A DNA stretch of 64,000 nucleotides from an uncultured Flavobacteriales bacterium (lineage in GTDB: Bacteria > Bacteroidota > Bacteroidia > Flavobacteriales_E > Vicingaceae), in NCBI GenBank assembly GCA_905479995.1, contig CAJQON010000006.1, positions 1 through 64,000 on the forward strand. Direction: 5' to 3'. Below are positions 39,038-42,752 of the stretch, piece by piece. The notes under the pieces are model-generated. The model did not search any database. It had not been told where the DNA came from and saw nothing but the letters and a program-made list of their open reading frames with translations. The position numbers and the translations under genes were made by a program. The number at the start of each line of letters is the position of its first letter. Position 1 is the stretch's first letter.

Positions 39038-39655
39038 TTATTGAGAAATGGATTTAATATAATTAACAGAACTTGGACCCAAATTAAATAGGAGATCAAC
39101 AATGCTTAGATTTGGAGCAAAATCGTTCCTATCACCAAAAACCTGCATGTATTCTGGAAAGTTAATTGTAGTAAGCTTTTTAGGGGAAAGTGATGCTCTA
39201 TAATCAACCATTAAATCAGTAGCTTCTATATATTCTTCAGACTGCTCGCTGTTGACATCAAGTTGTAGTAATTCGATCATTTTTGCATGCATCTTAGTGT
39301 TTAAATCTATCAAATACTTGTTCTTCTCATGAAACAAAGGATAAATTTCATCCTCATAATATTCAAAATAAGGAGATCTTCTATAGCCTGATTCAAGTGA
39401 TTTCCAATGAATTTTTTGCCAATCTTCAGCATAAGATATCTTAATGTCTTTTAACTTTTGTCTTCTTTTTACATTCAATAAAGGAACAGATAAACACTGA
39501 ATACCAGTTGGGCTAAGCATGTAAAACCTGTTTCTAAACGTTTGTTTTACAAAATTCTCAAAAGTGTCTTCAATGTTACTTGAATGTTGGCTAAGTAAAT
39601 AATAGTATGAAAGAGGTCCTAAATAACAACTAGGAAACAAACCTGATTTTGGCAT
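39038..39655 (-). CDS. WbqC-family protein
   Basis: This 205-residue protein starts at the ATG at 39655 (MPKSGLFPSCYLGPLSYY); the ORF opens 27 bases earlier at a less likely start. It has WbqC-like motifs: KQTFRNRFYMLSPTGIQCLSVPL, ISYAEDWQKIHWKSLESGY and SPYFEYYEDEIYPLF. The family is found in polysaccharide loci and in Bacteroidota core gene sets, with no firmly established activity. It is the first gene of the queD-folE run, 30 bases upstream of queD. Confidence 0.8.
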   Translation of the reverse strand: MPKSGLFPSCYLGPLSYYYLLSQHSSNIEDTFENFVKQTFRNRFYMLSPTGIQCLSVPLLNVKRRQKLKDIKISYAEDWQKIHWKSLESGYRRSPYFEYYEDEIYPLFHEKNKYLIDLNTKMHAKMIELLQLDVNSEQSEEYIEATDLMVDYRASLSPKKLTTINFPEYMQVFGDRNDFAPNLSIVDLLFNLGPSSVNYIKSISQ

Positions 39656-39794
39656 AATTATAGTTAAATAAACAGAAATCAAAAATACAAATATCTAACA
39701 ATAATTAGGCGGACTAAGCTGTTAATTAATATTTTGATTTTCTTAAGATTCGTCTATCAAAATTTCGATATTTGTACACCTAAAACTAAGGAAT

Positions 39795-42752
39795 ATGTCA
39801 AAATTAAAAATGCTCTTTTTTCTTTTACTTCCGCTAACAATGATAGCGCAAGACGAAAACGAAAACAAGTTAATGATTTCAGGGAATGTTACTGATTATT
39901 TTAGCGAAAACTCCATGTCTGGAGTGAGTGTTAAACTTACTGTTGGAGGTCAATATGCAAACAGCACTGCAACTGATGGTAAGGGAAAATATGAATTGTA
40001 TATGGATTTTGAGAAGGAGTACTTAGTTCTTTTTGAAAAAGCGGGTTGTGTACCAAAAAAGATATTAGTAAGTACAAAAGGAGTACCACCAGCAAATAGA
40101 AAAAATTTGGCGGATCTTTTTGTAGAAATGACCTTATTTAAAAGAGAACCAGGCTTAGATGTTGGTTTTTTAAGTCAACCAATAGGTAAAGCACAATACA
40201 ATTCGCAAACCAATGAAATAGACTGGAATATGGGATATACTGGACCAATATCTCAACGTTTGGATGGAATATTGAAAAATCATGTTCAAAAGAAAGCAGC
40301 AGCAGAAGAAGCTGAAAAATTAAAAGAAAAACAATATGCTGAAGCAATGAAGCAGGGTGATAAAGCTTTTTTTAAGAAAGACTTTGAAACGGCAAAAGCA
40401 GCTTATACCAAAGCATTGGGTATAGATCCTACACAAGCTGACCCTAAAGCAAAGTTAGCTTTAATGAATAAAGCGAAAGAAAAACATGAAGAAGCAGAAC
40501 GATTAAAGAAGGAGGAAGAAGAAAGAGCGGCAGCCGAAGCAAAAGCTAAAGAAGAAGCAGAGGCTGCAGCAAAAAAAGCGGAAGAAGAACGATTAGCGAA
40601 AGAAAAAGCCGAAGCAGAAGCTAAAGCTGCGGCAGAAGCGGAAGCAAAGGCAAAAGCAGATGCGGAAGCTAAAGCTAAAGCTGAAGAAGAAAAACGATTG
40701 GCCAAAGAAAAAGCTGAAGCGGAAGCAAAGGCTGCAAAAGAGGCAGAGGCTAAAGCTAAAGCTGAAGAAGAAGCCGCAAAGGCTAAAGCTGAAGAAGAAC
40801 GCTTGGCGAAAGAAAAAGCAGAGGCAGAAGCAAAAGCGGCAGCAGAGGCTGAAGCTATAGCTAAGAAAGAGGCTGAAGCACAAGCAAAAAAAGAAGAAGA
40901 GGAAAAGTTGGCAAAAGAAAAAGCAAAAGCAGAAGCAAAAGCAGCAGCAGAGGCAGAAGCAAAAGCAAAGGCAGCCGCTGAAGCACAAGCTAAAAAAGAA
41001 GAGGAAGAACGATTGGCTAAAGAAAAAGCAGAAGCAAAAGCAAAAGCTGCAGCAGAAGCAGAAGCAAAAGCAGCAGCAGAAGCGGCAGCACAAGCTAAGA
41101 AAGAGGAAGAGAAAAAGTTGGCTAAAGAAAAAGCAGCAGCAGAAGCAAAAGCGGCAGCAGAAGCAGAGGCAAAAGCAAAAGCTGAAGCAGATTTACAAGC
41201 AAAGAAAGTTGAAGAAGAAAAGTTGGCAAAAGAAAAGGCAGAGGCAGAAGCTAAAGCTGCTGGAGAAGCCGAAGCTAAAGCAAAAGCAGAAGCCGAAGCA
41301 CAAGCTAAAAAAGAAGAAAAAGAAAGGCTAGCAAAAGAAAAAGCGGAAGCAAAAGCAAAGGAAGCTGCAGATGCTGAAGCAAAAGCAAAGGCAGCCGCTG
41401 AAGAACAAGCTAAAAAGGAAGCGGAAGAACATGCTGCCAAAGAAAAAGCGGAGCAAGAAGCAAAAGCGTCTAAGGAAGCTGAAGCAAAAGCTAAAGCTGA
41501 AGCAGCAGCTAAAAAAGCAGCATTAGCTGAAGAAAAGGCAAAAGCCGAAAAAGAACTTCAAGAGCAAAAGGAAGCAGAAGAACATGCTGCTAAAGAAAAA
41601 GCTGAAGCTGAAGCCTTGGCAGCAAAAGATGCTGAAGCAAAAGCTAAAGCAGATAAAGCATTGGCAAAACAACAAGAGGAACAAGATAAGTTAGCTAAAG
41701 AAAAAGCAGAGGCTGAAGCTAAGGCAGCTGCAGCTGCCGAAGCAAAAGCAGCTGCAGAAGCAGCAAAACAATCTAAACTAGAAGAAAAAGAACGTTTGGC
41801 TAAAGAAAAGGCTGAATTAGCTGCACAAGAAGCAGCAGCAGCCGAGGCAAAGGCAAAAGCTGATAATGAAGCAGCTGCAAAAGACAAAGAGGAACAACGT
41901 TTAGCTAAAGAAAAGGCAAAAGCAGCAGCATTAGCAGCTAAGGATGCTGAAGCTAGTGCTAAGGCAGCTAAAGAATTGGCGCTTCAAAAAGAGAAAGAAG
42001 ATAAGCTTGCTAGAGAAAAAGCAGAGGCTGAAGCAAAAGCAGCAGCAGAGGCAGAAGCGAAAGCAAAAGCAGCAGGAGATGCCGCAGCTAAAAAAGAAGA
42101 GGAACATCGCTTAGCAAAAGAAAAGGCAAGAGAAAAAGCAAAAGCGAAAGCTTCAGCTGAAGCAGCTTCTATAGCAAATATGATGGCAAAAGAAAAAGAA
42201 AAGAAAGCGAAGAAACTAGCTAAAGAACAAGCTGAAGTTGATGCATTAGCTGCAAAAGAAGCGGAAGCAAAGTTAAAAGCGGAAAAAGAACTGGCCGAGC
42301 AAAAACAAAAAGAAGAAAGTTTAGCTAAAGCTGCAGCTGATAAAGCAGCAGCTTTAGCAGCAAAAAATGAAGCTCAAGCAAATGCTGAGGCTCAAGCAGC
42401 AGCAAAGAAACAAGAAGAAGAACGTTTGGCCAAAGAAAAAGCGATGGCTGCAGCAAAGAAAGCGGAAGACGAACGATTGGCTAATGAAAAAGAAATAGAA
42501 GAGATGAACAAAAAGATTGCTGCTGAACAAGCAATATTGGCAGAGAAAGAAAGAGTTAGAGCAGAGGAGGCTGCAAAGAAAAGAGCTGAAGCAGAAGCTG
42601 CTGCTAAAAAAGCAGAAGAGGAACGTTTGGCAAAAGAAAAAGCAACAGGGTTTAAAGTTAAATCTTCAGGAACAACTGTAACCAAAAAGAAAAAAGGAAA
42701 ACTGTCTAAAGGTGCAAAACAATTTGGTGGCAGTAAAAGAATTACATTTTAA
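39795..42752 (+). CDS. exported CRD-TPR protein with a giant 35-residue-repeat coiled coil
   Basis: This 985-residue protein has a signal peptide (MSKLKMLFFLLLPLTMIAQ). A carboxypeptidase-regulatory-like domain (about 28-110) and a TPR-like pair (about 175-235) follow. Then comes a very long Ala/Glu/Lys segment built from 17 tandem units, residues 267-877. Sixteen units are exactly 35 residues (five heptads) and one is 51, each opening with a variant of LAKEKAEAEAKAA. A short linker and a basic tail end in GSKRITF. The predicted structure is an extended helix or coiled coil that could bridge the periplasm or form a filament. No catalytic motif is seen. Reversed-strand ORFs across it are shadows of the repeat. 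Confidence 0.85.
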   Translation: MSKLKMLFFLLLPLTMIAQDENENKLMISGNVTDYFSENSMSGVSVKLTVGGQYANSTATDGKGKYELYMDFEKEYLVLFEKAGCVPKKILVSTKGVPPANRKNLADLFVEMTLFKREPGLDVGFLSQPIGKAQYNSQTNEIDWNMGYTGPISQRLDGILKNHVQKKAAAEEAEKLKEKQYAEAMKQGDKAFFKKDFETAKAAYTKALGIDPTQADPKAKLALMNKAKEKHEEAERLKKEEEERAAAEAKAKEEAEAAAKKAEEERLAKEKAEAEAKAAAEAEAKAKADAEAKAKAEEEKRLAKEKAEAEAKAAKEAEAKAKAEEEAAKAKAEEERLAKEKAEAEAKAAAEAEAIAKKEAEAQAKKEEEEKLAKEKAKAEAKAAAEAEAKAKAAAEAQAKKEEEERLAKEKAEAKAKAAAEAEAKAAAEAAAQAKKEEEKKLAKEKAAAEAKAAAEAEAKAKAEADLQAKKVEEEKLAKEKAEAEAKAAGEAEAKAKAEAEAQAKKEEKERLAKEKAEAKAKEAADAEAKAKAAAEEQAKKEAEEHAAKEKAEQEAKASKEAEAKAKAEAAAKKAALAEEKAKAEKELQEQKEAEEHAAKEKAEAEALAAKDAEAKAKADKALAKQQEEQDKLAKEKAEAEAKAAAAAEAKAAAEAAKQSKLEEKERLAKEKAELAAQEAAAAEAKAKADNEAAAKDKEEQRLAKEKAKAAALAAKDAEASAKAAKELALQKEKEDKLAREKAEAEAKAAAEAEAKAKAAGDAAAKKEEEHRLAKEKAREKAKAKASAEAASIANMMAKEKEKKAKKLAKEQAEVDALAAKEAEAKLKAEKELAEQKQKEESLAKAAADKAAALAAKNEAQANAEAQAAAKKQEEERLAKEKAMAAAKKAEDERLANEKEIEEMNKKIAAEQAILAEKERVRAEEAAKKRAEAEAAAKKAEEERLAKEKATGFKVKSSGTTVTKKKKGKLSKGAKQFGGSKRITF
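40593..42425 (+). repeat. tandem 105-bp repeat array (17 units)
   Basis: Units begin with the codons for LAKEK and recur every 105 bp. Sixteen units are exactly 105 bp (35 codons) and one is 153 bp. Unit sequences are degenerate at the DNA level but constrained at the protein level, so this is a coding minisatellite rather than a noncoding repeat. Confidence 0.9.

What the first reader, a model, noticed from the sequence alone, without database searches (positions are those of the whole stretch)
39795..42752. 985-residue exported protein with seventeen 35-residue Ala/Glu/Lys repeats
Seen: residues 267-877 form 17 units; 16 are exactly 35 residues (five heptads, 105 bp) and one is 51. The repeats are preceded by a CRD-like and a TPR-like part and end in a basic tail. 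Known: a regular heptad repeat favours a long coiled coil. Inference: the 611-residue array could reach roughly 90 nm if fully helical, enough to cross the periplasm several times or form a filament. The repeat number may vary between strains.
Basis: partly seen in the sequence, partly recalled or inferred. Interest (0 to 1): 0.6.

Follow-up and report, generated by a model that had tools for sequence, protein, structure and literature searches.

The report
Giant single-helix exported spacer protein
An uncultured flavobacterium carries an exported protein whose small folded head is attached to what looks like one unbroken helix of about 700 residues, roughly a tenth of a micrometre long, held together by internal salt bridges rather than wound into a coiled coil; relatives keep the same 35-residue repeat and a similar total length, so it probably acts as a long spacer or tether in the cell envelope.

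Summary
The gene and array are real: 985 aa at 39795-42752 (+), residues 267-877 being 16 units of 35 and one of 51. The coiled-coil reading is not supported: a/d positions are no more apolar than in shuffled sequence (GCN4 and Lpp controls score strongly) and there is no 3.5-residue apolar periodicity. Instead opposite charges sit four residues apart far above chance (159 vs 72.5 with permuted unit columns, 0/1000), as in E. coli TolA domain II. AlphaFold2 models the last part of the array as one unbroken 178-residue helix followed by a disordered basic tail. The head is a Q-rule signal peptide, a transthyretin-like CRD and one TPR whose capping helix runs into the array. Fourteen further genomes in three genera of the family (Vicingaceae MAGs) carry orthologues; the 35-residue period, the tail and the length (599-759 residues, CV 8%) are kept. 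Units are re-amplified in some genera; here codons between units are randomised. Best reading: a TolA-II-like single-helix spacer or tether, about 110 nm in contour, between a head-bound partner and a polyanion bound by the tail. Function and location are inferred. New variant of a known kind, in an unnamed Bacteroidota family.

The parts
39795..42752 (+). whole gene, 985 aa
39795..39848 (+). signal peptide, residues 1-18 (..TMIA|Q19), no lipobox cysteine; fits the Bacteroidetes Q-rule for signal peptidase I substrates (PMC5837995)
   Evidence: sequence; Q19 nearly invariant in the alignment
39870..40226 (+). CRD / transthyretin-like beta domain, residues 26-144 (core 26-118)
   Evidence: weak Pfam CarboxypepD_reg; AF2 pLDDT 89 for the 239-residue head; structural matches to carboxypeptidase D TTL domain and SusC NTE domain
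40329..40511 (+). single TPR plus capping helix, residues 179-239; capping helix runs into the array
   Evidence: phmmer to consensus TPR proteins E 6e-6; VIA match to FKBP51 TPR Z 9.8, rmsd 1.2 over 61 residues
40512..42644 (+). continuous A/E/K-rich helical region, residues 240-950
   Evidence: composition and i,i+4 charge pairing; AF2 model of its last 178 residues is one helix
40593..42425 (+). 17-unit array, residues 267-877 (35-residue units)
41433..41585 (+). the one irregular unit (51 residues, 547-597); +16 residues, not a multiple of 7
42645..42749 (+). conserved basic tail, residues 951-985 (TGFKVKSSGTTVTKKKKGKLSKGAKQFGGSKRITF); no acidic residue; predicted mostly disordered
   Evidence: alignment; (pLDDT about 48-59)
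39038..39682 (-). divergent neighbour, WbqC-like protein; next to orthologues in two of the three genera
   Evidence: PF08889, 1.4e-30

Best explanation
The protein is exported by Sec/SPI and works as a very long envelope spacer or tether. A small head (CRD beta-domain plus one TPR) binds a partner. The TPR capping helix continues as one A/E/K-rich single alpha-helix of about 710 residues, kept helical by i,i+4 Lys-Glu salt bridges and alanine, with no seam for a coiled-coil partner. A conserved, strongly basic, mostly disordered tail with a C-terminal aromatic residue holds the other end, most plausibly on a polyanionic envelope component (cell wall or LPS) or an outer-membrane protein. Contour length is about 110 nm at 0.15 nm per residue, far more than a periplasm is wide, so if periplasmic it must lie along rather than across the envelope; with a persistence length of 15-20 nm (literature value, from memory) the average end-to-end distance would be 50-60 nm. 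Shown here: domain anatomy, repeat, charge pattern, absence of heptads, conservation. Predicted: helix and head fold. Inferred: location, binding partners, spacer role.
For: Opposite charges at i+4: 159 against 72.5 +/- 16.6 when unit columns are permuted (0/1000), same charges at i+4 20 against 66.8 (2/1000), no excess at i+3, i+5 or i+7. The same in all 12 orthologues, z = 7 to 23, and in E. coli TolA domain II, z = 5.6. Apolar 3.5-, 3.67- and 3.75-residue periodicity no better than permuted columns; best-register a/d apolarity 0.34 vs 0.34 shuffled, while GCN4 and Lpp controls give z 3.7 and 5.5. LIVMF only 6%. AF2: one helix, residues 2-179 of the 213-residue C-terminal fragment, pLDDT mostly above 90, then disorder. 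Head model pLDDT 89, CRD and TPR matched. Codon identity between units equals chance (0.57 vs 0.57) although amino acids are kept; in L043 amino-acid identity is 0.81 with codon identity 0.49 against chance 0.45: selection acts on the protein unit. Array length 599-759 residues in ten complete orthologues (window included) although some genera re-amplified units. No T9SS C-terminal domain or lipobox found.
Against: No experiment on any member. Charged residues make up 50% of the helix region, less than the 76% of published myosin SAH domains (PMC5378345), so it is an alanine-rich variant. AF2 on a lone chain cannot exclude self-association, and only the two ends of the molecule were modelled, not the middle of the array. 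Cell-surface location is not excluded. No partner gene identifies a pathway; the conserved WbqC-like neighbour has no clear function. Length conservation may partly reflect shared ancestry.
Confidence: 0.55

Rival explanations
1. A long two- or three-stranded coiled coil or filament built on the 35-residue (five-heptad) repeat.
For: 35 is a multiple of 7 and one Leu/Ile recurs every 35 residues; the period is conserved across genera.
Against: No heptad or hendecad apolar seam above chance; a/d positions hold few large apolar residues (5%); array length differences among orthologues are mostly not multiples of 7, and the 51-residue unit breaks register. Coiled-coil programs are known to mistake SAH regions for coiled coils (PMC5378345).
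Confidence: 0.12
2. A cell-surface or matrix fibre: the protein is passed over the outer membrane and the long helix projects outward or lies on the cell as a coat.
For: The contour length far exceeds a periplasm; repeat-built fibres are common on bacterial surfaces (general knowledge).
Against: No T9SS C-terminal domain in Pfam or NCBIfam scans, no lipobox; the CRD resembles the periplasmic NTE domain of SusC transporters.
Confidence: 0.17
3. A low-complexity expansion without a length-dependent role: the head is the working part and the tract is a tolerated, slippage-made linker.
For: Units have been re-amplified in other genera (codon identity 0.65-0.84 vs chance 0.52-0.66); the short paralogue on contig C19 has only about 190 residues of such sequence.
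Against: Codons between units are randomised in the window while amino acids and the i,i+4 pattern are kept; the total length stays within 8% CV; the unit-15 type keeps its place 213-214 residues from the C-terminus in four species; the tail is conserved.
Confidence: 0.12
4. A polyanion- or partner-sequestering buffer: charge-patterned helix and basic tail act by binding along their length, not by spanning a distance.
For: Strong charge content and basic tail.
Against: The helix itself is near-neutral (net -14 over 719 residues) and opposite charges are paired within the helix, which leaves little for partners.
Confidence: 0.04

Closest known systems
TolA domain II (E. coli and other gamma-proteobacteria)
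   Same: Periplasmic, Ala/Lys/Glu-rich helical stalk with i,i+4 charge pairing and no heptads; tandem repeats in the gene, copy number variable (PMC3477136)
   Different: TolA has an N-terminal membrane anchor and a C-terminal domain III; domain II is 110-335 residues long in Proteobacteria (PMC12204202) against about 710 here; here head and tail are CRD-TPR and a basic peptide; Bacteroidetes lack identifiable tol-pal loci (PMC12204202)
Stable single alpha-helices (SAH / ER-K helices), e.g. myosin 6 and 10
   Same: i,i+4 salt bridges, very few apolar residues, no i,i+3,i+7 seam; used as semi-flexible linkers (PMC5378345)
   Different: Less charged (50% vs about 76%), more alanine, much longer (myosin SAHs reach about 200 residues), exported, regular 35-residue unit
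PorE (Bacteroidota OM-peptidoglycan protein, T9SS and gliding)
   Same: Exported Bacteroidota protein combining a CRD and TPR (PMC12204202)
   Different: PorE is a lipoprotein ending in an OmpA-like peptidoglycan-binding domain; none of these here
CRD-TPR giant proteins of the same bacterial family (own contig C13, 1640 aa; L054, 903 aa)
   Same: Homologous CRD and first TPR (E 5e-29 and 7e-43); L054 appears to share the basic tail (by eye)
   Different: Middle is a TPR array with short A/E/K linkers rather than the 35-residue helix array; C13 has another C-terminal domain

Membership tests
Heptad coiled coil | apolar residues at a and d in a continuous register | tested here: not met
   with GCN4 and Lpp as positive controls
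Single alpha-helix (SAH) | excess of opposite charges at i,i+4 (and/or i,i+3) | tested here: met
   159 vs 72.5 expected, 0/1000; all orthologues; only i+4, not i+3
Single alpha-helix (SAH) | apolar residues rare and without a seam | tested here: met
   LIVMF 6%, no periodicity
Single alpha-helix (SAH) | charged residues about three quarters of the domain, as in myosin SAHs (PMC5378345) | tested here: not met
   50% charged, 38% Ala; at best an Ala-rich variant
Single alpha-helix (SAH) | monomeric and helical in isolation | not testable with these tools
   needs CD and sedimentation; AF2 single-chain model shows one helix
TolA | uncleaved N-terminal TM helix with SHLS motif | tested here: not met
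   cleavable signal peptide with Q+1, no SHLS motif (sequence)
TolA | C-terminal globular domain III | tested here: not met
   ends in a short disordered basic tail; no Pfam hit there
PorE | lipobox and OmpA-like domain | tested here: not met
   no Cys in the signal region, no OmpA hit
CRD (carboxypeptidase regulatory-like / transthyretin-like) domain | sequence match and fold | tested here: met
   Pfam below the curated cut-off (22.4 vs 32.3 bits), but Foldseek and VIA match TTL domains (5aq0 Z 9.7, rmsd 1.9, 81 aligned; 9hfj Z 9.3, rmsd 2.9, 80 aligned)
TPR | 34-residue helix hairpin | tested here: met
   one repeat only
T9SS cargo | C-terminal T9SS domain | tested here: not met
   no hit in Pfam or NCBIfam

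The most novel reading that the evidence does not exclude
A molecular ruler of the Bacteroidota envelope: an uninterrupted single alpha-helix of about 100 nm whose length is held by stabilising selection while its 35-residue units turn over, made by elongating the capping helix of a TPR protein.
Probability: 0.25. Interest if true: 0.7.

Novelty: new variant of a known kind. Interest (0 to 1): 0.42.

Why it matters
Long exported helices of this sort are normally filed as coiled coils. If this one is a single helix, it would be about twice the longest TolA stalk quoted in PMC12204202 and over three times the longest myosin SAH in PMC5378345, in a phylum that lacks recognisable tol-pal loci. A family in which units turn over while total length stays within 8% offers a natural test of whether an envelope spacer is selected for its length. 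It also hints at a route for making one: extension of a TPR capping helix, with a CRD-TPR-array relative carrying a similar tail.

Tried and rejected
Heptad or hendecad coiled coil: tested with periodicity, register and column permutation, rejected. First shuffle test of charge pairs over-counts because units repeat; redone with column-consistent permutation. Slippage-made recent array: rejected for the window (codon identity at chance) but true in other genera. Length changes as multiples of 35 or 7: not found. Loss of the gene together with the WbqC-like neighbour in some genus members: looked like co-loss, but in G009 and G011 the contigs end near this place, so absence is not established. 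Sigma-54-like or regulon reading of the conserved upstream element: the window copy lacks the -24 GG, and no convincing second copy exists in the genome. Solved structures like the array by sequence: only designed toroids and a ribosomal protein at E 0.04-0.2, uninformative. Phylum-wide search with the head profile found one further genome of 296, but scored only nine candidates per genome, so it is a lower bound. Paper searches found no study of this family.

Full report
OBSERVATION. The window encodes a 985-residue protein at 39795-42752 on the + strand. Units starting at LAKEK-type motifs run from residue 267 to 877: 16 of 35 residues and one of 51. Identity at lag 35 is 0.555 and at lag 70 is 0.544, against at most 0.39 at other lags. 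Tandem Repeats Finder sees 105-bp copies over 40532-41509 only, because the 3' units have diverged.

ANATOMY. Residues 1-18 are a signal peptide; the mature protein would begin with Gln19, as the Bacteroidetes Q-rule predicts for signal peptidase I substrates (PMC5837995), and there is no lipobox cysteine. Residues 26-144 form a beta domain: Pfam CarboxypepD_reg is only weakly matched (22.4 bits, cut-off 32.3), but an AlphaFold2 model of residues 1-239 from 12 homologues has mean pLDDT 89 and matches the transthyretin-like domain of carboxypeptidase D (5aq0, Z 9.7, rmsd 1.9, 81 aligned) and the N-terminal extension of a SusC transporter (9hfj, Z 9.3, rmsd 2.9, 80 aligned). Residues 179-239 are one TPR with its capping helix (FKBP51, Z 9.8, rmsd 1.2 over 61 residues). 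That capping helix continues directly into the array. The A/E/K-rich region runs to residue 950, followed by a 35-residue basic tail without any acidic residue that is conserved in orthologues and ends in Phe in nearly all.

NOT A COILED COIL. Permuting the 35 columns in the same way in all units keeps composition and repetition but breaks spacing. Under this control apolar periodicity at 3.5, 3.6, 3.67 and 3.75 residues is unremarkable, whereas opposite charges four residues apart number 159 against 72.5 +/- 16.6 (0 of 1000), and equal charges four apart 20 against 66.8 (2 of 1000); i+3, i+5 and i+7 show no excess. In 28-residue windows the best heptad register is no better than in shuffled sequence for the window protein or any of 12 orthologues, while GCN4 and Lpp stand out; the i+4 signal is present in every orthologue (z 7 to 23; the shortest fragment, 57 residues, gives 7) and in E. 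coli TolA domain II taken from MG1655 (z 5.6). AlphaFold2 on the last 213 residues gives one helix over residues 2-179 and then disorder. This is the pattern of a stable single alpha-helix as described in PMC5378345, except that it is richer in alanine and less charged (50% against about 76%). That paper also notes that coiled-coil programs mis-call such regions.

RELATIVES. A search of the own genome shows three further proteins with this head: contig C19 (496 aa, about 190 residues of irregular A/E/K helix), C13 (1640 aa, TPR array) and C46 (169 aa, CRD only). Orthologues at 49-67% identity over the head lie in eight of 14 genus members (own included) and in two further genera of the family; named records show these are Flavobacteriales/Vicingaceae MAGs. 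Every orthologue with a readable array has autocorrelation peaks at 35 and its multiples. From the TPR to the tail the ten complete ones measure 599-759 residues (mean 671, s.d. 55, computed by hand), and the differences are mostly not multiples of 35 or 7. In a further genus L054 (903 aa) has the same head and, by eye, a related tail (GFRVNSTGG...VKVKVSF) around a TPR array with A/E/K linkers, which suggests that the array was made by expanding a linker or capping helix of a TPR protein (inference).

HOW THE ARRAY EVOLVES. In the window, codons at positions where two units have the same amino acid agree in 57% of cases, the chance level: the DNA copies are old and the amino acids have been kept by selection. 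L043 is more extreme (amino-acid identity 0.81, codon identity 0.49, chance 0.45). In L042, L045, L046 and L048 units are recent copies (codon identity 0.65-0.84 against chance 0.52-0.66). The unusual unit 15 is found 213-214 residues from the C-terminus in the window protein, L039, L040 and L041, so the C-terminal part is inherited unit by unit while the N-proximal part is more homogeneous. Several MAG contigs end inside the array (L045, L049, L050) and L038 has an N gap there, so assemblies do suffer here, but the full-length copies from separate assemblies agree.

SURROUNDINGS. The gene stands alone. A WbqC-like gene (39038-39682, -) is transcribed away from it and is the neighbour in the g1 and g5 genomes with the orthologue, but not in g4. 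Within the genus the genomes without the array gene also lack this neighbour, but contigs of two of them end near the expected place, so this may be assembly. Downstream lies a convergent miaA.

MECHANISM. The best reading is a long semi-flexible spacer or tether: the head binds a partner, the salt-bridged helix sets a distance, the basic tail binds a polyanionic or membrane component. Helix residues 216-950 give a contour of about 110 nm; with a persistence length of 15-20 nm (from memory of the ER/K literature) the root-mean-square end-to-end distance is 50-60 nm. It cannot stand straight across a periplasm, so it would lie along the wall or be on the surface. Anatomy, charge pattern, lack of heptads and conservation are shown; folds are predicted; location, partners and role are inferred.

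COMPARISON AND NOVELTY. It works most like TolA domain II, whose repeats vary in number and affect stress tolerance (PMC3477136) and whose length is 110-335 residues (PMC12204202), but it is not TolA: no membrane anchor, no domain III. It is not PorE either. It is a new variant of a known kind: an unusually long exported single helix in a family without a Pfam or NCBIfam model of its own.

Noticed in passing
39720-39775: Upstream block TGTTAATTAA...AAGATTC.T...AATTTCGATATTTG is conserved before orthologues of the genus (L039, L040, L041, L043, L047), and a GG(C/T)AAGATT core also before those of another genus (L045, L046); no convincing second copy in the genome. Probably promoter or regulator site.
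   Followed up: partly
L052:5787-10709 (own contig C13): 1640-aa exported CRD protein with many TPR-like repeats of about 65-70 residues and a distinct C-terminal domain (GITEEVV..YERVFYTWGGTYYYKNG); relatives of 1400-2250 aa occur in nearly every genome of the family and beyond, also without a Pfam name for the whole.
   Followed up: partly
L054:7125-9836: 903-aa relative with the same head and a similar basic tail but a TPR array in the middle: a possible evolutionary intermediate.
   Followed up: partly
39038-39682: WbqC-like gene kept next to the array gene in two genera; genus members without one also lack the other, but contig ends make this uncertain.
   Followed up: partly
L045, L049, L050, L038: Contigs of relatives stop, or hold N runs, inside the array: this locus is a systematic break point for short-read MAGs.
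   Followed up: no
L053:4802-5311 (own contig C46): 169-aa exported CRD-only relative that ends in a short basic helix, a possible stand-alone head.
   Followed up: no
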